Below are positions 5,340-18,611 of a stretch of 21,186 bases of DNA, one piece after another. Both the position numbers and the translations under genes were made by a program. The first letter of the stretch is position 1. Each line of letters opens with the position of its first letter. The stretch covers positions 1-21,186 of the forward strand of contig MU621376.1 in assembly GCA_025399215.1 (NCBI GenBank). The letters are read 5' to 3'. Source of the stretch: Globomyces pollinis-pini (taxonomy: Eukaryota; Chytridiomycota; Chytridiomycetes; Rhizophydiales; Globomycetaceae). A model generated the notes under the pieces. That model did no database searches and was not told the origin of the DNA. It saw only the letters and a list, made by a program, of their open reading frames with translations.

Positions 5340-6839
5340 ATGTTTTCTAACAGTTCAAATTGTACCAAATCAGACCAAATGAAAGACCCAAGACTTACTT
5401 TATTTAACAAGGTTGTGCTGTTAAATCAAGTTCTAATTGATAGTTTGTCAAATGATCCTCTAAAAAAACCACCAACAGAGTGTCTACTTACAAAATTAGG
5501 ATTTCTTGACTTAATCAAAAATTCATGGGAAGTTTGTCCACTCGATACATTCAAGATTCTGTTGCATTGGCGAGATAACCTTGAGAGCGAAACTCATCGT
5601 CATTGGTTCATCTTTGTCTTATCATACATTTGCAAATTAAATCCTGCGTGGATTCAAAGCAACATTGGCTGTATTTCTTATTATGGGCATCATCTTGATT
5701 TGATTCATTTATGGTATTATGTTGGTAAAGATACCAAATCTGTCATTTTGGACGCATTGATAGCACAATTAATAATTGATAGGAAATTAATGGATCGCTC
5801 AGATTCAGTCAATCAAATCTCATTCTTGGCAAAATCTATTCCAAATGAAAATGGCAAGTATGATCGATTGTTAGCAGGTCATCCTCGGTTTTGCATCGAG
5901 TTGTGCAAGGGTTTGTTTAAAATTGACTATGTAAATGTGCGGTCCTTAAAGTACTTGCGAAAAAATTACATTACACCTCTACGTCAAAAGATTAGAATTG
6001 TTGAAAACACAATTGGGAAGAAACCATTGAACAAAATATTTTATCAAAGCCGATCTGTCTTTTTAGAAAAGACATATATGAATACTGTTGAAGAAAATGA
6101 ATCGTTTTTGCAACCGAAGGTGATTGGTGAAAATGAATTTCACGCCCTTTACAAGTTTTTAATCAACGAGCCTTTCGGTCGATTTTATAACAAAAGTGTA
6201 TCTGATCTAGAATTACAAGCACAATGGAATGACTTGAAAGCTAACGTAGATGAAAGATGTATATTTGAAGATTGCATAGCCGTTACTCAAAATTCTAGAT
6301 GGATGGATCAAGTCTCTTTACGATTTGCCCACTTTTTAAGCTTACTGATGGTCAATCCGTCGAATGGTCGCAATATTGTCACCTTCTCCAATGTCCCTGA
6401 CTTATACACTGTATCAACTGGCAGTATTCAAGAGCAGGTCAATAGCCTACAGTATATACAATCCTCAACTCACCTGCACCTTGGAAGGCTTCTTGATCTG
6501 CTCTTAAGAGTTTACATCCACTCACAAAAGCATATCAAACGTGTGTTTGTATTTTCATGTGAATCATACGATCAAACTATGGTTGGAACTGAAGGTGTTA
6601 TTGATTTTTTTCGAATTGAATATCAAAAGCATGGTATTCACATTCCGCAAATTGTATTTTGGAACCTCAGTAATGAGACCATTACGCACCCTCAATACAC
6701 CAATCCCGAGACTATTACCATCAATGGAACCTCCGAAATGCTCTTGAATACTGTTTTGAATTCAAACCAGTTAAACCAATTAACCTCCATGTTTAACATT
6801 ATCCATGATACTCGTTATGATCATGTTCAAATGCCTTAA
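5340..6839 (+). CDS. DUF2828-family protein with degenerate VWA-like C-terminal half
   Basis: A single-exon frame of 499 residues; Met14 (5379) is an alternative start. The first half is helical, with YYGHHLDLIHLWYYV (114-128) and YLRKNYITPLRQKIRIVE (205-222), which match the pattern of DUF2828 proteins of plants, fungi and giant viruses (related to the TROVE/VWA group). The second half keeps the VWA-like strands (DCIAV 311-315, IVTFSNVPDLYTV 346-358, RVFVFS 401-406, PQIVFWNL 436-443). Where family members carry the metal-binding DxSGSM, this protein has TQNSRWM (316-322), and the later FSDM-type Asp is Cys407. Metal-dependent ligand binding is therefore likely lost. The function of the family is unknown. 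Assignment is from remembered motif patterns, without a search. Confidence 0.7.
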   Translation: MFSNSSNCTKSDQMKDPRLTLFNKVVLLNQVLIDSLSNDPLKKPPTECLLTKLGFLDLIKNSWEVCPLDTFKILLHWRDNLESETHRHWFIFVLSYICKLNPAWIQSNIGCISYYGHHLDLIHLWYYVGKDTKSVILDALIAQLIIDRKLMDRSDSVNQISFLAKSIPNENGKYDRLLAGHPRFCIELCKGLFKIDYVNVRSLKYLRKNYITPLRQKIRIVENTIGKKPLNKIFYQSRSVFLEKTYMNTVEENESFLQPKVIGENEFHALYKFLINEPFGRFYNKSVSDLELQAQWNDLKANVDERCIFEDCIAVTQNSRWMDQVSLRFAHFLSLLMVNPSNGRNIVTFSNVPDLYTVSTGSIQEQVNSLQYIQSSTHLHLGRLLDLLLRVYIHSQKHIKRVFVFSCESYDQTMVGTEGVIDFFRIEYQKHGIHIPQIVFWNLSNETITHPQYTNPETITINGTSEMLLNTVLNSNQLNQLTSMFNIIHDTRYDHVQMP

Positions 6840-7060
6840 ATAGTCCTGTTTTTTTCCTAATAAAATGAATTGTAACCGATTGACCTTTTCTAGTTGTAGT
6901 GGTGCAATATAGACATTCCAGAACAAATAAATTCGAAACTTCTATCCATTTGTTATCATTCTACTTTGGACATTCCATGTTTTATTTAAAATGGGAGTAC
7001 TGTCATTGATTTGTATCTATAGATAGAACATTTTTTTACCATTTGGAACTGGACATACAG

Positions 7061-9295
7061 ATGACGAGGTAAAATATGGTATCCTAAAGTTCTAGAGTAA
7101 ATGAAGATACAACCTTTATCCCCAAACATTCAAGTATCAAGTTTGATTCAGAGAATCCAGTGAAATTTGTGCAAGAATGTGTAGAACAGGATGGATTAGA
7201 ATTAACTCAATTCATTCTAAATTCATTTACAAACAAATCAGATTTAGATATCAGTTTAGTAGAAACATTGAAAGGATTATTGATACGATTTCCTTCTTGT
7301 CAACAACTGAATTGGTGTCTACCAACCTTTAAAGTATTGTTCAAAGCCAATACTGGAATCACATCCAACAATAACCGTATTATATTATACCGGAAATCAA
7401 TTATTGAACTGTTTGACTCTCAAATACACAATTTATCCAATTCTGCAGTATGTTTTGTATTGTAACAGTATAGCAGTCAATGAAAGATATTGATGTCTAT
7501 ATAAATTTACTCCAATCTACAAATGATAAGAATTTGATGTTGAGTGCTTGGGGATTGGTTTTAGTAATGTTTGGACAATCGTTACATCGCACCTCACATT
7601 TAAATGAATTACTATCATTGACAGAAGTATACAATTCAATTTTTTAATTCATCAATTGTAGGCTACGTTTAATTCTACTCGATTGACTTTAAGAGTTGGA
7701 TCTTTCAAAGCCTGGAAACGATTGATCTTAAATTTTACATTTGGAGGTTCGATTAAATGTATTTTTTATTGTAGAACATCTTTACAATCAAAAAAGAATT
7801 AATTTGATATTGATTCCAATTTGGAATTGTATTGAATTTGAAAAATCAAATGCAGTTCGTGAAACCTGTTTAGAATGTTTCTTATATTTGGTTGTACAAT
7901 TAACCAAACATTCACCTTCATATGATTTTATTCAATTGGTTATTGCACCCTTGATCAATTTCAATTTAGATTTAAATCTATTGACTGTATTCTTGAATCT
8001 CATTGGTAACATTTTGATTATAATTTTGTTTTAGTTAAAATGATTCAAGATATTGGAGATGAAAACAATCAGTTTGGTGGTATTATTGACGGTACATTTA
8101 TCAATCCTCCTTTGTATTAATAGTTATAGATTATAAATTATTTGGTGCTTCAACGGACATTTTATTGCAACATATACAACCGATAGTTACCGTAAAAGAT
8201 TGGAGCGTCTCACATTTTGAATTGTTTTTAAGATTCTTGAGAAATGTCTTGAACTCTTCGTTGGTGGTAAAATTCAATGTTATGATAACTTGTAGTTGAA
8301 AGTATCTAGCAATTCAAATAACTCTAGAATCTTCCATTAGATAGACTCTGGTACTTCATTATAAGATATATGGAATGGGCTTGGAATACTGGCTCTCAAA
8401 GTTTTGACATTATCACAAAGTTTCGTTTTTTAATTTAACATATTTTTATAGAGTTGTATTGTTTATTCATCAAAATATTACAAATCCTGTGACATTAAAT
8501 ATCCTTCTTCCTGGCCTGTGCCAGTTACATTTGCCTGATAGAGAGTTGACTAAAACTGATCTGACTGGCGCAAAGTATTTGGTAGATCATTGTGATAAAT
8601 ATATGCAGTTTACTGCACCAGGGACAAAGTTATACGTTTCTCTAACATCTTTTCAAAGTAAATTAAAATCAAAGGTATGTTTAATCAAATTTATCAAAGT
8701 TTCCTACATCACCTTACCAACCAGAAGAAAGAAAACGTGAATTAGAAAAGTATAATGGATTGGATAAAAGAGAAGTTCAAAGTAGTCCTGTTCCTCAAAA
8801 GAATAATTATGAATCAAAAAATAGACTGAAGCGAACGGCAACTGAATATGTGATTATACCACCAAAACCATCTATCCATCAACCCTTAACGGATCATCAA
8901 ATTGTACACTATCAATGTTAAACTTATATGTAGGAAACCATTGAAAATCATCCCATACAAACTAAGCTATTCAATACAGTAGATTTATCGCAAAAGGTTG
9001 ATGTGGATAGGTATGTTATTACCGTCATATATAAATTCTTGAAATTAAACTATAATAACATGATGATAACAATCACTAATCAAGTTTTAGCCCTCAAATG
9101 ACCAAACGATGGAAGGCTTCTGGCCCTTCAAATGAAAACAACCAGTCTTCCAACCTGGTACAGCATCATATCAACGGATTGCTAGAAAATTTACAAGGTT
9201 TGGACCAGTGTAACTTAAAAGAGTTGGTATCATTACAAAAGCAGTTGATTATGGTTATGACGAACGTTTGCGAAAAAATCGATATCCAATCCTGA
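7061..9295 (+). CDS. RIF1: RIF1-like HEAT-repeat protein, short form
   Basis: Thirteen exons (7061-7068, 7096-7447, 7474-7626, 7662-7746, 7775-8005, 8035-8091, 8130-8266, 8296-8301, 8328-8419, 8452-8674, 8700-8903, 8934-9010, 9091-9295) join in frame to 609 residues. The key match to the RIF1 N-terminal HEAT domain is GQSLHRTSHLNELLSL followed by LRVGSFKAWKRLILNF, the counterpart of the LGRTLHRS...AWKSLIDNF block in animal RIF1. RIF1 controls replication timing and telomere or break processing, in part by recruiting PP1. Animal and yeast RIF1 are three to four times longer; here only the HEAT part and a short polar tail remain, and I see no sure SILK/RVxF PP1 site. About 150 residues seem missing before the matched block, so the true start may lie upstream. 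The last intron is 80 nt; the others are 25-38 nt. Confidence 0.68.
8267..8327 (+). other. Composite intron: 29 nt + 6-nt exon + 26 nt (RIF1-like gene)
   Basis: GTAAAA...TGTAG (8267-8295), then TTGAAA (8296-8301), then GTATCT...CTCTAG (8302-8327). The hexamer adds Leu-Lys in frame. Splicing out all 61 nt at once would also keep frame, so the micro-exon is optional on protein grounds. Confidence 0.55.
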
Positions 9296-9300
9296 ATAAA
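9293..9300 (+). terminator. Poly(A) signal overlapping the stop codon of the RIF1-like gene
   Basis: TGAATAAA: the last base of the TGA stop is the first of AATAAA. It predicts a 3' UTR of only some tens of bases, fitting the 114-bp gap to the convergent MIOX gene. Confidence 0.55.
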
Positions 9301-9409
9301 TATCTCTATTGTATATTTTTTTTATATTATAGAATAAGAGATTCAGGATCTGATCAAGTTTTGAAATTGTAAAAAGATACTGTGATCAAAATGATACTTT
9401 ATATAGAAT

Positions 9410-10306
9410 TTACCAACTAAGTTTCCCAGGACAGTATTTATCTATCAGACTACTGTAGTAAGGTTTTAACTCATTGATATCAGGTCTGGCATCTGCCTTT
9501 GAGTATAAATCAAATTTGTTGAATTCTAAAACCCAATCCAATAGTACATGATCATTTTCAGTCATGAAATGACGATATTCCCCTTTTTGGTGCCAAGGAT
9601 AGCAGGAATGGTATCGTATCATAGCTAATCCCTCTTCTGGGATTTTAGTTTTGTTATGAATCAACATCTGATACAAATATTCATCATGTCCCCACGCAAA
9701 TTTTAGGTTCTTTAGTCCACATTGCATTTGGTACATCCCTAACTTTGTTGAATATCTTGGATTAGTCATATCTTTGTTTAATTTGTTAAACTCTGGGAAA
9801 ACACATGTATCAGGAATCTGACATCCTACAACCCAAGTATCACCCCCTAAAGCCCATTGATCACCTAATGCGGTGCCCTCTTGTCCATCAACTGGATCAC
9901 CCCACAAAAATTGAATTTTACCCATATCATGAAGTAATCCAACAAGCTGAAACCAATCTGGATGACCAGCAGCTCTAATTGATTCTGCTGTTTGCAACAT
10001 ATGCTCCAAATTCGGTAAAGAAGAATCAGGATCTGAAGAATCCACATAATCTTCCAATGCCTTGAAAGCTTCCCAAATAGACATTTTCGCCTTTGAGAAA
10101 CTTCCCCACTTCTGTTGCATCTTATTTTGAAACTCGACAGTTTGGTTTTGGCGCATTAAATTGTAATGTCTATGAACGATAGCTTGCCTACTACTGTCTT
10201 GATAGTTTCTAAATGTTTCTACTGCCTTCCCCATCGGTGGTAACCCATCAGTTTTCACACCAACAGCTGGAAGAACACTTTGGAAATTATTTGATGGAAT
10301 GATCAT
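9410..10306 (-). CDS. MIOX: Myo-inositol oxygenase
   Basis: A complete single-exon frame of 298 residues. MIOX opens the ring of myo-inositol with O2 to give D-glucuronate, in the cytosol. All ligands of the di-iron centre known from the human enzyme have counterparts: H102 (EHMLQTAE), H126 and D127 (LLHDMGK), H207 (GHDEYLY), H233 (RYHSCYPWH) and D266 (EFNKFDLY). The C-terminus DKYCPGKLSW is typical. Length is slightly above the animal enzyme. It is convergent with the RIF1-like gene. It has no intron although intron-rich genes lie on both sides, which could reflect intron loss, retroposition or later acquisition. The pathway partners for glucuronate use are not in the window. Confidence 0.96.
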   Translation of the reverse strand: MIIPSNNFQSVLPAVGVKTDGLPPMGKAVETFRNYQDSSRQAIVHRHYNLMRQNQTVEFQNKMQQKWGSFSKAKMSIWEAFKALEDYVDSSDPDSSLPNLEHMLQTAESIRAAGHPDWFQLVGLLHDMGKIQFLWGDPVDGQEGTALGDQWALGGDTWVVGCQIPDTCVFPEFNKLNKDMTNPRYSTKLGMYQMQCGLKNLKFAWGHDEYLYQMLIHNKTKIPEEGLAMIRYHSCYPWHQKGEYRHFMTENDHVLLDWVLEFNKFDLYSKADARPDINELKPYYSSLIDKYCPGKLSW

Positions 10307-10346
10307 TTTTTAATTGAATAACAATTATCGTTCCATTTTCATAAGG

Positions 10347-10711
10347 ATGACCCATGAAGCCACCCCGTGTACAAACAAAGTTGTGAAACATCAACCCTTC
10401 CAGAAAGTATCAGTCGATTGGACCAAGGATCTTCAAAGATTATACGACGTTCGATATTGTGATCTGGTTCTATTACCTGAGTAATGACAAATTTTGTAGT
10501 TTAACCAAAAATATTTACTAAATTCAAACGATTGATTGAGCTGTATTTACTAAAGAAGTTGACAAAAACTAAATGTAAATGATTTGCATTTAAAGATAAT
10601 CATGAATTACATGAACTTACTCAAAAACTGTTTTCAATTTTAAAATATTGGAATACGAACAGCTCGATAATAGAAACCTTTACAGATAAAACCTCATCAA
10701 GATTTCATTAA
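10347..10711 (+). CDS. Possible small coiled-coil protein gene, structure unresolved
   Basis: Between MIOX and ISY1 there are coding-like stretches that I could not join cleanly. From an ATG at 10347 a frame of 45 codons runs with SVDWTKDLQRLYDVRYCDL, up to a TAA at 10482-10484. Further on, FKRLIELYLLKKLTKTK (about 10524-10575) and NHELHELTQKLFSILKYW (from about 10600) are open and helical, with leucine/isoleucine heptad-like spacing, ending at a TAA at 10709-10711. Linking them needs introns outside the 25-38 nt range (about 21 nt and 74 nt) or a frameshift. It may be a real small gene with unusual introns, a decayed gene, or the leader of ISY1. No family recognised. Confidence 0.3.
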
Positions 10712-10773
10712 AATTGCTTTCTCTATGTGAATCTTTGTCAAAGTTGAAAAGAAAATTTTCCTTCCAAAGATCC

Positions 10774-11596
10774 ATGGCTAATAATCAAAAAGAAAAACAG
10801 AAATCAGTCGTTCATCGATTTAGAGAACAAGAAAAACTTGAAGATGATCCATTTGATGGTCATTCGAAGCGACCGTTTACCTCACATAATGTCAACTCTG
10901 TAAAGGAATGTGAAAAATGGAGAGCAGAAATCATATCAGAAATCGTTCGAAAGATTGAAAAAATAGCAGATCGTATTTAATTGTATTCTATCTAATGCAA
11001 TTTATTTTAGCAAACATGGAAGATCATCGAGTCAGAGAATTCAACGACAGTATCAATCAATCAATGAAGGAAAAAAGACATTGGGAGACTCGAATTAAAG
11101 AACTTGGCGGTCCAGATTACATGGTACTTGAATGATAAATGTCCTTATTGGTAGAAAAAAGGAGCATCCCAATTAGAAATGGGTGGGGTGACAGTTCCTG
11201 GTACTAGAGGTTATCGTTATTTTGGTAGAGCAAAGGAATTGGAAGGAGTTAGAGAGTTATTTGAACAAGCAGCAGAAATGCAAGCCAAAATATCACCAGA
11301 AGAATTAATTCAAAGAGTTGATGCTGATTATTATGGATACCGAGATGAAGAAGATGGATTATTGTTAGCTTATGAACAGAAAAGGGAAAAAGAGCGTAAA
11401 CATAAACAATTATTTAAATTTAGAGATTGAACTGTTGAAAGATCAAGATGTAATCAATGAAGATTTTGCAAGCAATCTACTTCCTCTACCATATGTTCCT
11501 AGTCAACAAGATATTGAAGATTGGATGGTAGTGAAAAGACAACAGGAACTTGTACAAAGATATCTGGGTAAAGAAGCGAAAGTCGGAAAAGTTTGA
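10774..11596 (+). CDS. ISY1: Pre-mRNA splicing factor ISY1
   Basis: Four exons (10774-10972, 11011-11123, 11155-11395, 11424-11596) give 241 residues. ISY1 is a component of the Prp19-associated spliceosome and acts around the first catalytic step. Family landmarks are RFREQ near the N-terminus, ECEKWRAEIISEIVRK, REFNDSINQSMKEKRHWETR, IKELGGPDYM, PGTRGYRYFGRAKELEGVRELFE, DADYYGYRDEEDGLLLAYE and the C-terminal WMVVKRQQELVQRYLG. The start at 10774 was chosen because ISY1 proteins begin shortly before the RFREQ block; an open extension upstream has no ATG. Introns are 38, 31 and 28 nt. A splicing factor from a genome with such short introns is of side interest. Confidence 0.93.
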
Positions 11597-11601
11597 ATAA
11601 A
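11594..11601 (+). terminator. Poly(A) signal overlapping the ISY1 stop codon
   Basis: TGAATAAA, with the stop TGA sharing its last base with AATAAA, as in the RIF1-like gene. Confidence 0.55.
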
Positions 11602-11641
11602 AATCATCAATTTAACTGATTTAAATCTGTCTTTTTCATAG

Positions 11642-11708
11642 TGGTTTTAGTATAAATTCACCTTGTTTTTTCATGGTATTTTATCTGGTTTTTATATAAA
11701 TTCACCTT
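11642..11708 (+). promoter_or_regulatory. Duplicated TATA module in front of QCR10
   Basis: Two 23-bp copies, 11642-11664 and 11686-11708, differ at two positions and share the exact 14-mer TATAAATTCACCTT. The second TATAAA begins 40 bp before the ATG. The shorter string TATAAATTC also occurs upstream of ERG6 on the minus strand. This looks like a duplicated core promoter. Confidence 0.5.
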
Positions 11709-11734
11709 CTGAATTTTTTCGTTTTTTCTCTAAA

Positions 11735-12032
11735 ATGTTGACACAAAAATGGATTACAGTCGCTCCTTGGATTCGTAAAAGTCTTGCTGCTACTACCGGT
11801 CCTAAAGTAAAGGGATAGTGAGTTTAAATTATTTACTAATATTAGGTAATTAACTGTTCAATCATTAACATTTAGCGGTCCTTCTGTTCTTCTCTGGGGT
11901 GCTGCTGCTGGCATCTTTGTCTTGGATATTGTGGAAGTTACTCCTTTATTCCGTAGAGAAGTTTTCGCTAAATTACCTATTGTCGGTGGATACTGGCAAC
12001 GCAAAATCGAAGCTTCTGCCAGAGTTGATTAA
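11735..12032 (+). CDS. QCR10: Cytochrome bc1 complex small subunit (QCR10-like)
   Basis: Exons 11735-11817 and 11876-12032 give 79 residues. The protein has a short basic N-terminus, one membrane helix (LLWGAAAGIFVLDIV) and then FRREVFAKLPIVGGYW, the pattern of fungal QCR10 / animal UQCR11: a Trp-Gly at the helix start, then a Lys-Ile/Leu-Pro-hydrophobic-Gly motif after it. It is a single-pass peripheral subunit of complex III in the inner mitochondrial membrane. An ATP synthase small subunit was considered, but the motif order fits QCR10 better. The only intervening region is 58 nt and splits into two tandem GT...AG units. Convergent with the dehydrogenase gene, 57 bp apart. Confidence 0.8.
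11818..11875 (+). other. Tandem intron 28 + 30 nt joined at AG|GT (QCR10)
   Basis: Unit 1 is GTGAGT...ATTAG (11818-11845), with TACTAAT shortly before its 3' end; unit 2 is GTAATT...TTTAG (11846-11875), with ATTAAC near its end. Splicing as one 58-nt intron or as two steps gives the same mRNA (TA|C, Tyr codon). Confidence 0.6.
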
Positions 12033-12037
12033 ATAAA
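12032..12037 (+). terminator. Poly(A) signal overlapping the QCR10 stop codon
   Basis: The TAA stop at 12030-12032 runs into AATAAA at 12032-12037. Confidence 0.5.
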
Positions 12038-12088
12038 TCACCAATTTACATCTCATACAGAACATTACGATTTTTGATTTCAATTTTC

Positions 12089-12094
12089 TTTATT
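12089..12094 (-). terminator. Poly(A) signal overlapping the HADH stop codon
   Basis: On the minus strand AATAAA contains the whole TAA stop codon (12090-12092). It faces the QCR10 signal across about 50 bp. Confidence 0.5.
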
Positions 12095-13303
12095 TTTTAG
12101 CTGGATATTCATAAAAACCACGACCAGTCTTCTTTCCTAACCAACCAGCATCAACATATTTGATCAACAATGGACATGGTCGATACCTGAAATCAGTCAT
12201 TACTAATATTTACTTGTCATCACCAAGTTGATGGTGTAAAACTCTCATGATGGCCAAACAGGTATCTAGCCCAATGAAATCACCCAAAACAAGTGGACCC
12301 ATTGGAGTGTTAGTTCTGTTAACGTTAGTAAACATATGGAAGCAAACCTAATGGTCAAATATGTTACTTAATCACTTACCCCAGTTTCATGGTAACATCA
12401 ATATCTTCCCGAGTAGCAATACCCTTACTTATGAACGATTGAAATAACTTACTTCTTGTAGAACATATGCAGCTAAAATGAACTATAAATTGAACATATC
12501 ATTTACCTTCGTTAATGTAAGGCATTAAGATTCGGTTAGCAATAAAACCAGGGACCTAATATCAAACGAACTAAATCAAATACATCAGCACTTTGAGTAG
12601 TCACTTTTCCAAATAGTTTAGCCAACTCTAACGTGGTATTCAACGTTTCTGGTGAAGTTGCAAGACCAGGAATAATTTCTACCAGCTTCATAATTGGGAC
12701 AGGATTCATGAAATGCATTCCAATAACCTACCAAAAATGAGTTCCGTTTTCTTAAGAATATTGATTCTCCTTTCAAACCAATAAGTTATTGAATTACCTT
12801 ATCTGGCCTAGCAGTTGAAGCGGCAATCTTAGTAATAGATATTGAAGAAGTGTTGGATGCCAATATAGCATGCTCTGGAGTGATTTGATCCAAATTCATA
12901 AACAATTCACGTTTCTAACACTCAGTAATCCAGTTCAACGATATACCAAACTAGGATTTTCAGAGACAGCTTCAATAACGAAATCAGAATTTTTGAAATC
13001 TTTAATATTATCTGTAATTGATAATCGTGATAACGTTTCTGAACGTTCATCTTCAGTTATTTTTCCTTTACTGACATCTTTTTGCAACATTAAATCTACA
13101 AGAATTAACTTCAATTAAACGATACCAATAAATTTGATTCCCTTTTCAGATTGTGCTTTATTAGAGTCCAAGATAGTGACATTTTTCTTTCCTTTCAATG
13201 CAGCTACATGAGCAATTCCGACACCCATTTGTCCTGCACCAACAATTCCAACATTTTGGATTTGGGAAGCTACTGAATACGATCTTTTGAATGCACGTAA
13301 CAT
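12090..13303 (-). CDS. HADH: Mitochondrial 3-hydroxyacyl-CoA dehydrogenase
   Basis: Nine exons (13303-13126, 13095-12947, 12914-12798, 12727-12584, 12555-12507, 12472-12453, 12423-12380, 12315-12214, 12186-12090) give 299 residues. The enzyme oxidises L-3-hydroxyacyl-CoA with NAD+ in fatty-acid beta-oxidation. The first 16 residues ([16 protein letters not shown]) look like a mitochondrial presequence, and the Met at 13303 was chosen for this reason. [10 protein letters not shown] (18-27) is the NAD-binding loop. The catalytic pair is H153 (MHFMNP) and E165 (KLVEIIPG), 12 apart as in the human enzyme. The C-terminal domain carries [38 protein letters not shown] and the terminal [10 protein letters not shown]. 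Most introns are 27-34 nt; one is 70 nt and one is a 32+32 nt tandem. One exon is only 20 nt. A bacterial-type 3-hydroxybutyryl-CoA dehydrogenase has the same fold and cannot be excluded as the closest relative. Confidence 0.93.
12316..12379 (-). other. Tandem intron 32 + 32 nt joined at AG|GT (HADH)
   Basis: Reading the minus strand, unit 1 is GTAAGT...CATTAG (12379-12348) and unit 2 is GTTTGC...AACAG (12347-12316), the latter with TTTACTAACG before its end. The units are equal in length. Removal restores GTNTPMGP exactly. Confidence 0.6.
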
Positions 13304-13436
13304 TTTAATTGCTTTTGAAAATGAGAAAAAAATTATGAATTGAAGGTCACAAGGGGGTTGGTTGGTGTAACAAACTATTCCCCCACATTTGGTTAAATTA
13401 TCATGAATTGTCAAGAACTGATTTTATTCGCGTAAT
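13304..13436 (-). promoter_or_regulatory. Upstream region of HADH with G5...C5 inverted pair
   Basis: GGGGG at 13353-13357 and CCCCC at 13380-13384 (plus strand) flank 22 bp that include GGTTGGTTGGTG. AGGGG on either strand resembles fungal stress-response elements. This stands out in AT-rich DNA, but no regulator can be named. The upstream LRR-like gene ends only 133 bp before the HADH start on the same strand. Confidence 0.3.
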
Positions 13437-14869
13437 TCACAGCATACTTTCAATCCGATGATGTAGCATGGACTGGACACGAAATGATGAAGACTCGTCT
13501 TTCAAGCATCCATTGACAAGGTCATAATCATAACCATTTGATTTATCAAACTGATTACATCTTCTAATGAGCTCCAGAAAACTGAAACGGAAAGGGGACA
13601 TTATCTTTCCAATACATAATCGATTCAACAATGTTTTTTCAATCAACGTTCGTTGATCCAAATAAAACTCTATATCAAAACAACAAAGATTAAAAATATT
13701 TGAGATTGTATCATGTGTTGTAACAGTTGCCAATAATATCAATTTCCGAGTTATCATCACCAGTAAAGAACAAAGTTTCCGATTCTGTAGATGTACATGA
13801 GCATTTCGTTTTCTCAATTCTTCAATCTCTACCAAATCAGTCTCACTCAACATCGTTGACTTGTTCATCTTCAACACCTGATGGAACCTATCCACATCCA
13901 ATTCCTCCAAACTAACATGTATCCAAGCATCATAGAAGATAAAAAATTCTATAAATGGGTTTAACAATACTGGTTCAATAAGTTCAATGTTTTCTTCTGG
14001 TAAACTATACGATATGTTACAAAATGATATTGTTTGAATGGTAGATAGTTCACTTAACAATTGCTCGGCATCTGGTGATTCCAATTGACATTGTGATATA
14101 GTTAATGATTGTAGATTGCTTTTGGAAATACTTGGTGCAATATGTTTCATTGGTATAGTATCATTAGATTGTTCTAATCCCAAATAAATTAGATTTCTTG
14201 ACCGTGTAATTATATTTGCTAGTGATTCTCCCGTCATTTCATCCAAATCTCCTATTATTCATGAAATTCCTTTTGTAATTTACCTAATTGTCAAGTTTTA
14301 GTTTGATTACCTAATAAAATCAAGTATACTAAAGATTTAGTTGACAGAGAATCAAGAATCTTTCGTTTACAATAATGATTCATTGAACCTAATTGTAAAC
14401 CATACAAGGATGAATTGGATTGAATGTAATCACAACAGTCTTCAATATCTTCAATTGAAATTGTTTTTATACTTAAATAATGAATATTTCCTTTCTTCTT
14501 TAATGCTGCGTAGATATTGGTATGATCAATTGTTTGGAATTCTAAATTGGTGATGCTACTGTTGGTTTCGATGGCATGACAGAAAGATGAGATTTGTTCT
14601 TTTGGTAGCCATTCAACTGAGTATTTTGATACTGAATTATCCAGGATTGGTTCTAAATCCAACTCTCGGTTGCAAGAATCAAAAGATTGTGAATCTAGAT
14701 CTTCATCAGAGTCTTCGTCGTTTTGAATATCGGCTTCAGATCCTTCTTCATCATCTGAATCAACATAATCTTCGTCAGTTTCAGATTCAACAGCATCCTC
14801 CTTCAGATTAGATTCAACAGCATCCTCCTTCAGATTCGATTGATTGTTTGGTTGTAACTCTTCACTCAT
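13437..14869 (-). CDS. Acidic, LRR-like protein of unknown function
   Basis: Exons 14869-14311 and 14251-13437 give 457 residues; an upstream in-frame Met at 14896 would add nine, but MSEELQ is the simpler start. Residues about 1-75 are very acidic (Glu/Asp/Ser) and hold a nine-residue tandem duplication, SNLKEDAVE. Residues about 95-270 show irregular leucine-rich repeats of the ribonuclease-inhibitor kind (for example NLIYLGLEQSN and NLQSLTISQCQLES). The C-terminal 190 residues are helical and unlike anything I recognise. The acidic N-terminus suggests a nuclear or protein-binding role, but this is a guess. The intervening region is a 27+32 nt tandem intron, and the reading frame downstream is intact. 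Confidence 0.75.
14252..14310 (-). other. Tandem intron 27 + 32 nt joined at AG|GT (LRR-like gene)
   Basis: On the minus strand unit 1 is GTAATC...CAATTAG (14310-14284) and unit 2 is GTAAAT...AATAG (14283-14252). Removing both restores LVYLILLGDLDEM in frame. Confidence 0.55.
14783..14836 (-). repeat. 27-bp perfect tandem duplication in coding sequence
   Basis: Copies at 14783-14809 and 14810-14836 are identical, in frame, and encode the duplicated SNLKEDAVE unit of the LRR-like protein. Identity at the DNA level suggests a recent event. Confidence 0.85.
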
Positions 14870-15030
14870 CTTGGCAACAATTGATAAAAACCACAAATGA
14901 AATGGATAAAAGACAACAGAATCACTTACTATTGTACTATTGGGAGATTCCCAACTCCATACTCAACAATAATTGTTAGAGATCACCTTAAACTCAATAT
15001 ATTTCAAACACTATGAACAATCATCTGAAA

Positions 15031-16552
15031 TTAATTATCAGGAGTTTCAGTATCCAATGGTTTACGAACCAAAAAGAAAAACATCGGAGTAAAGAGATTT
15101 TGCTCACCAGCAGCAACAAGAGCACGGGATGCATTCATCAACAATTGAGATATTTTGTGAGTACCACTTGGAGCTAAACGAAGGGTTTCTAAACTCCATA
15201 CCATTTTATCAGTAATACTATAATCAATATCTCGTAAAACTTACTATTGTCCAATTGGTGTCATGCGGAAATTAACCAAAGAGTCATAGTCAAGGTTGTA
15301 GGTTCCTTTAAGAGTACTATACCATGGTTTAGTGGCGACCGCGTTTGGATGAGATGGATCAGCTAAATCACAATATTCTTGAATTTCAAATCCAACAGCC
15401 TTAAGAGCATTCAAACAATCAGGGATAGATGATAATCGAGGAATTGAATTGCCTTCCTAAAACAATAAGTAAAAACGAATAAAATACTTCAAGAGCATGC
15501 ATAATGGTTTTGTGGTCCATGTTGGTTTCATCATAGTTTGCAGTGGTAAGCCATTCATAACATGCAAAGTATCCACCTGGCTTCAAAGTTCTGAAAATTT
15601 CCTTATATGGGTTTTCGAGGTTACGAGAATGGCAGGTAGCTTCGACAGCATACGCAGCATCAAATGAGTTTTCAGGGAACGGCATATTTTCAAAATCACC
15701 CTAAATACATTAGTATATATGTTATTCAGATAGGATTGTGTTTTTGAGAAAGCCAATATTTGACTCATCCTAGCAAAAGCAACATCGCATAATATCCTGT
15801 TCACTTCCTTTAATAAAAAGAGACCATACAGAAATACTATTGATGATGTGCCGTAATGGAATGTAATTAAAAAATTGTCATATCGCATTTTGATCAAAAG
15901 CATTGCTGCAGCAATGATTAAGAACAATACAACTCCACAAACGGTATGGTAGAATAAAGTTAATCTTTTTACCTTAACTGCTTTGCACAAGTTAGACAAT
16001 CCAAACTTGTTGGCCAAATAACCACAACGAGCGACTTGATATTCATTGTTGTTCAAGCCGACAACTTTAGCGCCAGAGAAACGTGCAACTTCCCTCATTG
16101 GACCACCTGGAAACACAATTAGGATAGATCAAAGTACCAACACCACAGCCAACATCCAAACAAACTTGATCAGGCTTCAAGTTCAGTTTTAAAGCCAAGT
16201 AGTCTTCATGTCGAGAGATAGATTGTTGGAAAGTGGATTCATTGTACATGACAGCGAAATGGAAAGAAGAACCCCATCCTAACAGATCAGTCATAAAGAA
16301 CAAACCATATTCATAAAAGTCGGTAACTAAGTCGTAGTAATGGTTGGTGAGTTTATCAGAGCCTTCACGACGTTTAGCAACGGATTCTTCAGTATCTTGA
16401 ATACCATTTTTGTGATCTTGATCCCAGAAGGCATTGTAAGAATCGACAGTGTTTTTATGAGCAGCAGAGTCAGTATTCTTTTTCCTAAGTCTAATCAAGA
16501 AATCGTCGGCTTGAGGATCTTGAACGGGAGTAGGAAGGGTGGAGGTAGTCAT
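15031..16552 (-). CDS. ERG6: Sterol 24-C-methyltransferase
   Basis: Six exons (16552-16306, 16278-16138, 16106-15973, 15700-15488, 15456-15245, 15217-15031) give 377 residues, the usual ERG6 length. The enzyme transfers a methyl group from S-adenosylmethionine to C-24 of zymosterol in ergosterol synthesis. The sterol-binding motif [11 protein letters not shown] is at 80-90, SAM motif [10 protein letters not shown] at 123-131, then [20 protein letters not shown] and the C-terminal [21 protein letters not shown]. Introns in order are 27, 31, 272, 31 and 27 nt. The first is a multiple of three without a stop, so a naive reading keeps nine extra residues (starting LFFMTDLL) inside the sterol motif; family alignment says it is spliced. 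The 272-nt intron is exceptional here. Divergent from the MFSD10-type gene. Confidence 0.96.
15701..15972 (-). other. 272-nt intron of ERG6, about ten times the local norm
   Basis: GTAAAA...ATTTAG on the minus strand, with TACTAAT shortly before the 3' end. Flanking exons join exactly at [11 protein letters not shown], so it is an intron. The host frame stays open right through it (90 codons) and would encode two hydrophobic segments. It contains the perfect 16-bp palindrome CATTGCTGCAGCAATG (15901-15916). Confidence 0.75.
16279..16305 (-). other. 27-nt in-frame, stop-free intron in ERG6
   Basis: GTTTGT...CTGTTAG on the minus strand. Length is 3n with no stop in the host frame. Removal restores the conserved [11 protein letters not shown] motif. 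Confidence 0.8.
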
Positions 16553-16974
16553 GGGTGAAGTAAAAAATTGAGATCACGACACAGGAATTTATAGTCGGAC
16601 AGATCAATGCGTAAACGATAAGAGAAAATTGGTTAATTTGAAGTACTAGTGAACCTAACTAATAATGCTGTTGGTCAATTAATACAAGGTAGAATAGGCA
16701 TCAAGTAAACGAAGGGATTCTACCAAATTGCTATAAGCAAATAGGAAAGAAATGATTGTTACTGAATAAGGTCTGTTTGCGGATTTGCTGTATACCACCA
16801 CCCTTGATCCATTCTTGTACCCGTTGCTTGATTAAATTCGTATAAATGTTGATGTGATCTATGAATTCAAACCAATGACCACTGAATCAACGTTTAACCA
16901 ACTGCGCTTCCTATTCTTCTTAAATCACTGTTAATTCATCTCTTGTGGTGTCTTTTGCTTGTCGTTTTTCTCTC
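16553..16974. promoter_or_regulatory. Divergent promoter region between ERG6 and the MFSD10-type gene
   Basis: No gene seen. On the minus strand TATAAA (16593-16588) lies 36-41 bp before the ERG6 ATG. ATCACGACAC at 16573-16582 differs at two positions from the classical sterol regulatory element ATCACCCCAC, which would suit ERG6 but may be chance. TATAAATG at 16841-16848 points toward the transporter, 127 bp before its ATG. Confidence 0.4.
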
Positions 16975-18611
16975 ATGAAATCACAATCTTCAATCCTTCG
17001 AGTGGTCATTTTCGCCTTACTCATCGACTTACTCGCCTTCACTATCATCCTGCCGTTATTCCCAAGACTGCTTAAGCATTACGAATCTACCGATGGAAAT
17101 AATGTACTCCCTGACCATTTTAACCATAGGAAAATACCCTTTACTACTATCTAACTACTCTGGTATCTTATTTCCTCTAATATCCAGGTATTTATTTATC
17201 TCTGATCCACAGGTTCGTAAACTAAGAGTTGTGATTGCGGGAAATGAAGATAGATTAGATATCATCATGTTTGGAGGGTTTCTAGGTTCTCTATACTCAT
17301 TTCTACAATTTATCAGTGCTCCTATTATTGGTAAATCCAGTGATATATATGGTAGACGGTTTGTCTTGTTGGTCAGCATGGTATTTCAACTCCAAAATAA
17401 CTTTTCTAGATTGGAAATGCCATTTCAATGTTATTATGGATTTTTGCTGATTCTTTTGAAATATTTTTAGTTTCGAGAATAGGTAAATGGAAAGTATTGA
17501 TTTACCATTTAGTGGGAGGTTTAACAGAAGGAAATGTTCAAATGTCTATTGCTATGATTTCTGATATTTCAGACTCAACCAATCGCTCGAAAACATTGGC
17601 TCTAGTTGGGATTTGTTTTGCCGTTGGATTCACCTTGGGACCGCCATTAGGTATTTACAACTAATCAAATAATCAACCATCATTTTTCATTATTAAAACA
17701 CCAATCTAAATTTCATTATATAATTCTCAAATGATAATCAACTAACGAATGGTATAGGTGCTTACATGACCAACATCAATCTCAAAGAATATTTCCCAAC
17801 ACTTCCAATAAATTCATACTCATCACCCGCCTTATTCGCATTTATCCTCATCATTATCGAAACAATCTATCTACTCGTAGCCTTACCCGAAACCTTAAAC
17901 TTTAAAAAAGAAACTAATGAAAAATCAAATCGATTGGATTCCAATACCAATCCACAATCATTAACTCACCTATCTATCATTCATTTCTTATTTTTGTTTG
18001 TTTTTAGTGGAATGGAATTCACATTAACGTTTTTAACGTATGATCGATTTCAGTTTAGTAATACTGAACAAGGTTGAGTGGTAGAAATGATTGATTTTAG
18101 GGAAATTATTGGCATTTTTTGGGATTTTGACTGCTATCGTTCAAGGTGGTTATGTTCGACGAGTTTCTGGTAAAGAATCTTTGATTGCATTTCAAGTAAT
18201 TGTTTTGTATTAATGATGTTAGGGTATCATTCATGATTGTTGGATATTCAACATCTAGGTATTTTAAGTTGTGGGATTGGTTTATTGATTATTGGATTGT
18301 TGGCTAAAACTGAATTGATCTATTTATATCTTGGATCAGCATTCATGGCATTTACATCTGGAACAGTTGTCACTTCATTAACATCTTTGGTGTCATTGGC
18401 AGATCATCAGAAACAAGGTGAAACGTTGGGGTACTTTCGATCTGCTGGTCAATTGGGTCGTTGTTTGGGTCCAATGGTGGCATGTAGTGGGTACTGGGTG
18501 TTGGGGTCCACTCAACTTTATACAGTATCGGGCATTTGGATGGTCGTTTTAGCTGGTATCTCTTGGTTAATTGTGCCATCAAAGTTTGTCAAAGGGTTTA
18601 AGCAAGATTAA
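16975..18611 (+). CDS. MFSD10: MFS transporter, MFSD10 (TETRAN) type
   Basis: Nine exons (16975-17103, 17130-17162, 17213-17380, 17410-17482, 17513-17650, 17758-18072, 18101-18195, the single base 18223, 18259-18611) give 434 residues with about 12 hydrophobic helices. MFSD10 matches include [36 protein letters not shown], the MFS loop motif SSDIYGRR (residues 96-103), [43 protein letters not shown] and [13 protein letters not shown]10 is related to bacterial tetracycline exporters and moves organic anions in animals; the substrate here is unknown. Introns are 26, 25+25, 29, 30, 107, 28 and 27+(1-nt exon)+35 nt. The 30-nt intron (17483-17512) is stop-free in frame. The ATG at 16975 was used because upstream in-frame codons are GTG only. 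Confidence 0.88.
17163..17212 (+). other. Tandem intron 25 + 25 nt joined at AG|GT (MFSD10-type gene)
   Basis: Unit 1 GTATCT...ATCCAG (17163-17187) and unit 2 GTATTT...TCCACAG (17188-17212) are equal in length, share a GTAT start and both end in a pyrimidine-rich CAG. The exon before is only 33 nt. The joined protein reads [14 protein letters not shown]. Confidence 0.65.
17483..17512 (+). other. 30-nt in-frame, stop-free intron (MFSD10-type gene)
   Basis: GTAAAT...CATTTAG. If kept it would insert ten residues ([10 protein letters not shown]) between SRI and VGGLTEG, where the family has none. Confidence 0.7.
18196..18258 (+). other. Composite intron 27 nt + 1-nt exon + 35 nt (MFSD10-type gene)
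   Basis: GTAATT...GTTAG (18196-18222), then a lone G (18223), then GTATCA...TCTAG (18224-18258). Removing the whole 63 nt gives CAA GTA TTT TAA, an immediate stop. Keeping the single G gives CAA GGT ATT TTA and restores the family spacing. Confidence 0.6.

What the first reader, a model, noticed from the sequence alone, without database searches (positions are those of the whole stretch)
7061..18258. Double introns: 50-64 nt intervening regions are pairs of tiny introns
Of 49 intervening positions I reconstructed, 39 are single introns of 25-38 nt, four are longer (70, 80, 107, 272 nt), and none of 39-69 nt is simple. Six of 50-64 nt each split into two canonical GT...AG units in the local size range, with 0, 0, 0, 0, 1 and 6 nt between them. 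A chance AGGT near the middle of every such region is unlikely, more so in AT-rich DNA. I infer tandem miniature introns, removed stepwise (recursive splicing or stwintron-like), perhaps formed by intron insertion or duplication at an existing splice border.
Basis: partly seen in the sequence, partly recalled or inferred. Interest (0 to 1): 0.87.

Follow-up and report, generated by a model that had tools for sequence, protein, structure and literature searches.

The report
Back-to-back trains of tiny introns
In this fungus-like genome a number of genes are interrupted not by one intron but by two to ten complete miniature introns joined end to end with no exon between them, an arrangement that mature messenger RNA hides and that our literature searches did not turn up.

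Summary
The genome's introns are mostly 23-38 nt. In 271 kb my gene finder called 642 single introns of that size and 13 zero-exon arrays; one was false (end of an Ess1/Pin1 gene), leaving ten pairs, one array of four and one of five. Between short introns, an exon length of exactly 0 occurs 19 times, lengths 1-4 once in all. Genome-wide, three AG|GT borders at unit spacing occur 726 times, against 77 at a wider spacing. Two fetched arrays have ten units each (285 and 289 nt); with them removed, the proteins align to PHYHD1 and CHMP3 without a gap at the junction. In five of six long arrays units are unlike each other yet keep donor, branch site and acceptor, so each is probably recognised on its own. 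One array shows clear unit duplication. Unit-by-unit removal is inferred; no RNA data were available. They are not stwintrons. New variant of a known kind; interest high.

The parts
11818..11845 (+). first 28-nt unit of a zero-exon pair in a QCR10-like gene (CDS about 11735-12032)
   Evidence: Pfam QCR10; alignments to PDB 8ab6 and 9etz chains are gapless across the junction but begin only 2-4 residues before it
11846..11875 (+). second 30-nt unit of the same pair; boundary AG|GT at 11845/11846
17163..17187 (+). first 25-nt unit of a zero-exon pair in an MFS transporter gene (CDS 16975-18611)
   Evidence: MFS_1 spans the junction, (no residue-level check)
17188..17212 (+). second 25-nt unit of the same pair
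18196..18222 (+). 27-nt intron upstream of a 1-nt exon in the MFS gene
18223..18223 (+). 1-nt exon (G) that keeps the reading frame
   Evidence: frame; MFS_1 score 137.1 bits with it against 130.9 for a single 89-nt intron
18224..18258 (+). 35-nt intron downstream of the 1-nt exon
8267..8295 (+). 29-nt intron upstream of a 6-nt exon (gene about 7061-9295)
8296..8301 (+). 6-nt exon between two tiny introns
   Evidence: no homology check
8302..8327 (+). 26-nt intron downstream of the 6-nt exon
14284..14310 (-). first (upstream) 27-nt unit of a zero-exon pair in an LRR-like gene
   Evidence: no domain match for a part of this gene
14252..14283 (-). second 32-nt unit of the same pair
12348..12379 (-). 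first (upstream) 32-nt unit of a zero-exon pair in a 3-hydroxyacyl-CoA dehydrogenase gene
   Evidence: alignment to PDB 4kug gapless across the junction
12316..12347 (-). second 32-nt unit of the same pair

Best explanation
The 50-64 nt regions are tandem arrays of complete, minimal GT-AG introns of about 28 nt that abut at AG|GT with no exon between them. In this genome such arrays run from two to at least ten units. Each unit carries its own donor, branch site (yTnAy, mostly 7-15 nt before the end) and acceptor and is probably recognised by intron definition and removed on its own, most likely in order of transcription. Each removal leaves exon joined to the next GT, so the next unit becomes an ordinary intron (recursive splicing at zero-length exons). 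Any order, or even one long step, gives the same mRNA, so gain or loss of a whole unit is neutral for the protein. Arrays can therefore grow by duplication of a unit (seen) and probably by gain of introns at AG|GT borders (compatible with the counts). Shown: the arrays, the absence of their sequence from the homology-matched coding sequence, the signals per unit, and duplication in one array. Inferred: unit-by-unit removal, its order, and the insertion route.
For: Size: 642 single introns of 23-38 nt and one called gap of 39-49 nt in 271 kb. Exon lengths between two short introns: 0 nt 19 times, 1 nt once, 2-4 nt never, 85 in all over 5-60 nt, about 1.5 per nt (two of the 19 fall in the rejected triple). 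Six of the ten pairs were called as one gap in runs blind to inner structure. Unit signals in six long arrays lie in the range of ordinary single introns (mean quantiles 0.37-0.70), and 0 of 5000 mononucleotide shuffles of each can be tiled by GT..AG units at all. With the array left out, alignment is gapless at the junction for ten units in CHMP3/Vps24, ten in PHYHD1, five in a CLK/LAMMER kinase at HDLG|LIHTDLKPEN, and pairs in HADH, QCR10 (little upstream overlap), CDKL2 and an M48 peptidase. Genome-wide: 726 matches at unit spacing against 77 at 39-54 nt; in 46 of 55 listed clusters every unit is at or above the 5% quantile of single introns. Independent recognition of close neighbours: 1-nt exon, 5-nt exon at the DEAH box, 12-nt exon in the XDH iron-sulphur motif. 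Duplication: units 2-6 of the PHYHD1 array are alike, two identical; 9 of 90 adjacent unit pairs have p<0.01.
Against: No RNA data: splicing in one step is not excluded, and for zero-nt arrays the mRNA cannot tell. Longer single introns exist: 70 nt in HADH, and by my gene models 107 nt in the MFS gene and 272 nt in the sterol-methyltransferase-like gene (the latter judged by recalled motifs). So the spliceosome is not confined to 38 nt. The gene finder makes mistakes: a triple at C3:42769-42853 with 0 of 2000 shuffles as good is really the end of an Ess1/Pin1 gene (motif recalled), so the shuffle test alone proves little; and the first called unit of the PHYHD1 array is coding, that of the MCM8-like array probably too. 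Pairs at C1:14785, C3:46263, C2:76671 and W:14252 lack homology support; those at W:17163 and C3:9059 and the four-unit array have at most domain-level or recalled support. The reversed-pattern control gave 904 matches, more than the 726; I rest on the spacing control.
Confidence: 0.78

Rival explanations
1. Each array is removed in one step as one longer intron, from the first donor to the last acceptor; the inner AG|GT sites are relics of past duplication or insertion and are not used.
For: Simple introns of 57-272 nt appear to exist, so longer introns can be spliced. The mature mRNA is the same either way.
Against: Unused inner sites should decay, yet in the CHMP3 array no two of ten units are alike at p<0.01 while all ten keep donor, branch site and acceptor at intron spacing. 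Of called gaps of 50-66 nt ten are pairs and six single, and of the six I judge two artefacts and three doubtful. Micro-exons of 1, 5 and 12 nt between tiny introns are kept.
Confidence: 0.17
2. The arrays are artefacts of gene modelling or of chance AGGT in AT-rich DNA.
For: AT-rich introns often allow one chance tiling (shuffles with any tiling: 138-576 of 2000 for the ten called pairs). One called triple was an artefact. An antisense AGGT chain at C2:36468 is a coding repeat.
Against: Gapless homology at the junction of seven arrays; 0 of 5000 shuffles tile the long arrays; 726 against 77 by spacing.
Confidence: 0.03
3. They are stwintrons: an internal intron interrupts a splice element of an external intron.
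For: Two consecutive reactions per position are plausible, in a fungus-like genome.
Against: Each unit is complete by itself and they abut at AG|GT; no donor, branch site or acceptor is split. The [D1,2] form needs G[GT..AG]T (search model in PMC9024468, passage), which is not the layout here.
Confidence: 0.02

Closest known systems
Recursive splicing at zero-nucleotide ratchet points (Drosophila; PMC8605326, passages seen)
   Same: Juxtaposed acceptor and donor (AG|GT); removal of one segment regenerates a donor for the next; nothing of the zero-length exon stays in the mRNA.
   Different: There: predominantly long introns, and a cryptic RS-exon is needed at the ratchet point. Here: units of about 28 nt, each a complete minimal intron, up to ten in a row.
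Stwintrons of fungi (PMC5639578 abstract and passages; PMC9024468 and PMC7138796 passages)
   Same: Two spliceosomal introns at one position in fungi, taken out by consecutive reactions; stwintronisation is a proposed route.
   Different: Defined by an internal intron that interrupts a splice element of an external one. Here no element is interrupted and the number of units is open-ended.
Dual-specific splice sites and the UBC tandem array (PMC10809524, abstract)
   Same: AGGT that can act as donor or acceptor, in tandem.
   Different: There the sites bound coding ubiquitin repeats and change the protein; here the repeats are the introns and the mRNA does not change.
Minimal introns of ciliates such as Paramecium and Nyctotherus (PMC5014332, PMC2633312; listing only)
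   Same: Introns of about 25 nt (Paramecium, Nyctotherus).
   Different: Zero-exon arrays are not mentioned in the abstract starts that I saw.
Introners (PMC9860276; listing only)
   Same: Fast intron gain.
   Different: No multi-copy intron family was found in the 271-kb sample.

Membership tests
Recursive splicing at zero-length exons | Acceptor and donor juxtaposed as AG|GT inside the intervening sequence | tested here: met
Recursive splicing at zero-length exons | Stepwise removal with splicing intermediates | not testable with these tools
   no RNA data; indirect support
Recursive splicing at zero-length exons | Long host intron with a cryptic RS-exon | tested here: not met
   arrays of 50-289 nt made of 24-34 nt units; long host excluded by size; a cryptic exon was not searched for; definition from PMC8605326 passages
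Stwintron | An internal intron interrupts donor, branch site or acceptor of an external intron | tested here: not met
   units are complete and abut; definition
Introner-derived introns | Many near-identical introns dispersed in the genome | tested here: not met
   among 675 units in 271 kb (pairs sharing a 7-mer, length within 4 nt) one pair scored 15 and the rest 12 or less; only the sample was examined
Ordinary U2-type introns of this genome (each unit) | GT..AG, length 23-38, donor, branch-site and acceptor scores like singles | tested here: met
   about 94% of 154 units reach the 5% quantile of singles
Tandem satellite or minisatellite | Units similar in sequence at constant period | tested here: inconclusive
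   met in part by the PHYHD1 array (units 2-6), not by five other arrays (0 pairs at p<0.01 in each)

The most novel reading that the evidence does not exclude
Hundreds of 'intron trains' in one genome: up to ten or more minimal introns head to tail, each kept functional by selection and removed one after another like a zip during transcription. Intervening sequence then grows in whole-intron steps, by unit duplication and by reinsertion at the AG|GT borders that introns themselves supply, so an existing intron becomes a favoured target for the next. Ordinary RNA-seq annotation cannot see it, so it may be overlooked elsewhere.
Probability: 0.62. Interest if true: 0.92.

Novelty: new variant of a known kind. 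Interest (0 to 1): 0.86.

Why it matters
It gives a natural test bed for two open questions: whether introns preferentially arise at existing splice borders, and how small and how close introns can be for the spliceosome. Ten complete introns of about 29 nt in a row at one exon junction would need ten successive spliceosome cycles in under 300 nt, or a way to ignore 18 good splice sites; either answer would be informative. It also warns annotators: zero-exon arrays leave no trace in mature mRNA and are easily recorded as one odd-length intron.

Tried and rejected
Gene finder with a uniform intron-length prior: many likely false long introns; replaced by a prior centred on short lengths, with a branch-site model. 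Triple at C3:42769-42853 rejected: the first 'unit' encodes the C-terminus of an Ess1/Pin1 parvulin (motif recalled). Four-fold AGGT chain at C2:36468: antisense of a coding repeat. Pair C2:6987-7127 (26+115) set aside as unsupported. First called unit of the PHYHD1 array (27 nt) is coding by homology and that of the MCM8-like array probably so (family and its sequence recalled, not checked by a call). Recent tandem duplication as the general origin: little sign in the 271-kb sample, lowest p 0.028; supported in the PHYHD1 array and in 9 of 90 adjacent pairs. Introner family: not found in the sample. SEN1 homologues to check the four-unit array: none at E<=0.001; Pfam SEN1_N spans it. Organism: a single-kinase tree puts the query on a long branch beside other long branches, unsure; MIOX is nearest to oomycetes; I leave it as a fungus-like eukaryote. 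A paralogue of the HADH gene at C330 spans residue 234, the place of the pair, in one open frame, which does not tell gain from loss. U6 search was silent in the genome and in the controls.
Full report
Setting. The window is the whole of contig C287 (21,186 bases) of an unnamed 18.5-Mb, 459-contig genome, about 35% GC. Gene content looks fungal: QCR10 and SEN1_N and a CLK/KNS1 kinase whose named matches are nearly all fungi, apart from a top entry labelled Taxus. A tree of one kinase does not place the organism securely. No annotation, RNA or relatives were available.

Method. I wrote an unsupervised gene finder (periodic Markov coding model, donor and acceptor matrices, branch-site motif, intron lengths up to 300 nt from then on) and trained it on the window plus 200 kb of contigs C1 and C2. 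It was then run with inner exons allowed down to 0 nt, or forbidden below 12 nt, the latter so that gaps are found without help from inner signals. Another 50 kb of C3 was added. The total is 271 kb, about 1.5% of the genome.

The observation. All six doubles are confirmed at 8267-8327, 11818-11875, 12316-12379, 14252-14310, 17163-17212 and 18196-18258. The HADH double is backed by an alignment to a solved structure without a gap at the junction; so is the QCR10 double, though those alignments begin only 2-4 residues before it. In the 1-nt case, removal of the whole 63 nt would break the frame; keeping the G and removing 27+35 gives an MFS_1 score of 137.1 bits, against 130.9 for the in-frame rival of a single 89-nt intron.

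Beyond the window. In 271 kb 731 gaps were called: 642 single introns of 23-38 nt, one of 39-49, six single and ten paired of 50-66, and the rest longer, 68 of them single. Some of the long ones join two genes (for example window 6634-6899 and 13312-13447, C1:15318-15462; my reading). Of 14 rows with more than one unit, one (26+115) was set aside and one triple was judged to be the coding end of an Ess1/Pin1 gene (motif recalled). Twelve arrays remain: ten pairs, one of four units (SEN1 gene) and one of five (CLK-like kinase). Six of the ten pairs were also called as one gap by the run blind to inner structure; C1:14785, C2:18066, C2:76671 and C3:46263 were not. The five-unit array sits inside the catalytic loop, HDLG|LIHTDLKPEN, and without it the protein matches CLK2 with no gap there. 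Pairs in a CDKL2-like kinase and an M48 peptidase are gapless at the junction too. Pairs at C1:14785, C3:46263, C2:76671 and W:14252 have no homology support; W:17163 and the four-unit array lie inside Pfam matches, and C3:9059 rests on a recalled family.

Spacing. Between two short introns an exon of 0 nt occurs 19 times (17 without the rejected triple), 1 nt once, 2-4 nt never, and 5-60 nt 85 times, about 1.5 per nt. Zero is a sharp peak.

Shuffles. For the pairs, 138-576 of 2000 dinucleotide shuffles can be tiled somehow and 0-75 as well as the real sequence. This test is weak on its own: arrays were picked by the same scores, and the rejected triple passed it with 0 of 2000.

Genome-wide. 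Three AG|GT boundaries at spacing 23-38 (pattern with H before and W after) give 726 matches in the genome; the same pattern at 39-54 gives 77. The tool's own control, the pattern read backwards, gave 904 and 898; it measures a different word that looks commoner here, so I rely on spacing. The 99 matches listed, all on C1-C17, form 55 clusters; in 46 every unit scores at or above the 5% quantile of single introns. By proportion that suggests some 340 such clusters in the genome, an extrapolation that ignores background.

Long arrays. I fetched four. Ten units (29,28,28,28,28,27,29,29,28,31) interrupt a PHYHD1-like gene; the protein has no gap against PHYHD1 at the junction once the preceding 27 nt, first called an intron, is read as coding. 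Ten units (26-32 nt) interrupt a CHMP3/Vps24 gene at AKE|VVNS, with no gap there against CHMP3. Six units lie in an MCM8-like gene (family recalled, not checked) and five in an unidentified gene. In all six long arrays, these four and the two of the sample, 0 of 5000 mononucleotide shuffles can be tiled, and stop codons stand in all three frames.

Are the units functional? In five of the six long arrays no two units are similar at p<0.01, yet donor, branch site and acceptor are kept; mean signal quantiles of the six are 0.37-0.70 relative to single introns. Neutral relics would be expected to lose them. That tiny introns can be spliced separately very near each other is indicated by conserved micro-exons: 5 nt covering DE of a DEAH box and 12 nt in the iron-sulphur motif of xanthine dehydrogenase. 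A second, 8-nt micro-exon called in the latter gene lies beside an alignment gap and is not claimed.

Origin. In the PHYHD1 array units 2 and 3 are identical, 2-6 are alike, and 1 resembles 8: duplication of units, as in a satellite. Over the clusters that passed, 9 of 90 adjacent pairs have p<0.01, expected 0.9 (identical neighbours were merged there). In the 271-kb sample the lowest pair p was 0.028. Intron positions prefer AG|G: AG|GT sites in coding sequence are occupied 21 times of 397. If each intron edge were a target at the rate of its own context, 31 zero-exon boundaries would be expected; 19 were called, 17 kept. Both the four- and the five-unit array of the sample lie at AG|GT exon sites, which make up 21 of 655 positions (p about 0.001). 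So gain at splice borders is compatible with the numbers; it is not proved, and the two routes are not exclusive.

Mechanism. Best reading: intron definition on each short unit, removal probably in order of transcription, each step regenerating exon|GT. Any order gives the same mRNA. The main rival, one-step removal, cannot be excluded by sequence, because single introns of 57-272 nt appear to exist. One of these, C3:24851-24907, even looks like a pair that lost its inner acceptor, since its last 26 nt look like an intron by themselves (by eye).

Known or new. Ten searches of the paper library listed stwintrons, ratchet points, dual-specific sites and minimal ciliate introns; in the capped listings, abstracts and passages that I saw there were no arrays of abutting minimal introns. 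That library lacks most subscription journals. The closest known process is recursive splicing at zero-nucleotide exons (PMC8605326, passages). Stwintrons (PMC5639578 abstract and passages; PMC9024468 and PMC7138796 passages) differ by definition. I therefore call it a new variant of a known kind.

Noticed in passing
G000:C1:21683-21964 (-), in L004 (C1:20001-30000): The N-terminus of the CLK-like kinase gene has 15-nt exons (RRYDD repeats) alternating with seven introns of 25-30 nt, a tandem exon-intron repeat.
   Followed up: partly
G000:C1:36062-36121 (-): A 5-nt exon between 28- and 27-nt introns covers the DE of a DEAH box in a RadD/Irc3-like helicase gene.
   Followed up: yes
G000:C1:94342-94501 (-): 12-nt micro-exon (and a less certain 8-nt one) in the iron-sulphur motif region of a xanthine dehydrogenase gene.
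   Followed up: partly
window 15701-15972 (-): A 272-nt intron called in the sterol 24-C-methyltransferase-like gene, without inner AGGT; by eye part of it reads like a hydrophobic open stretch.
   Followed up: no
window 9410-10306 (-): Intronless myo-inositol oxygenase gene in an intron-rich genome; the named closest proteins are mostly from oomycetes (61-76% identity), a possible horizontal transfer.
   Followed up: partly
L024 (G000:C3:20001-30000), C3:24851-24907 (+): Simple 57-nt intron whose last 26 nt look like a complete intron while the expected inner AG is missing: possible decayed pair.
   Followed up: no
G000, whole: The Rfam U6 model found nothing, but the control genomes were silent as well, so this says nothing about absence.
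   Followed up: no
G000:C2:36468-36585: A four-fold AGGT chain at intron spacing that is the antisense of a coding tandem repeat: a decoy for pattern searches.
   Followed up: yes
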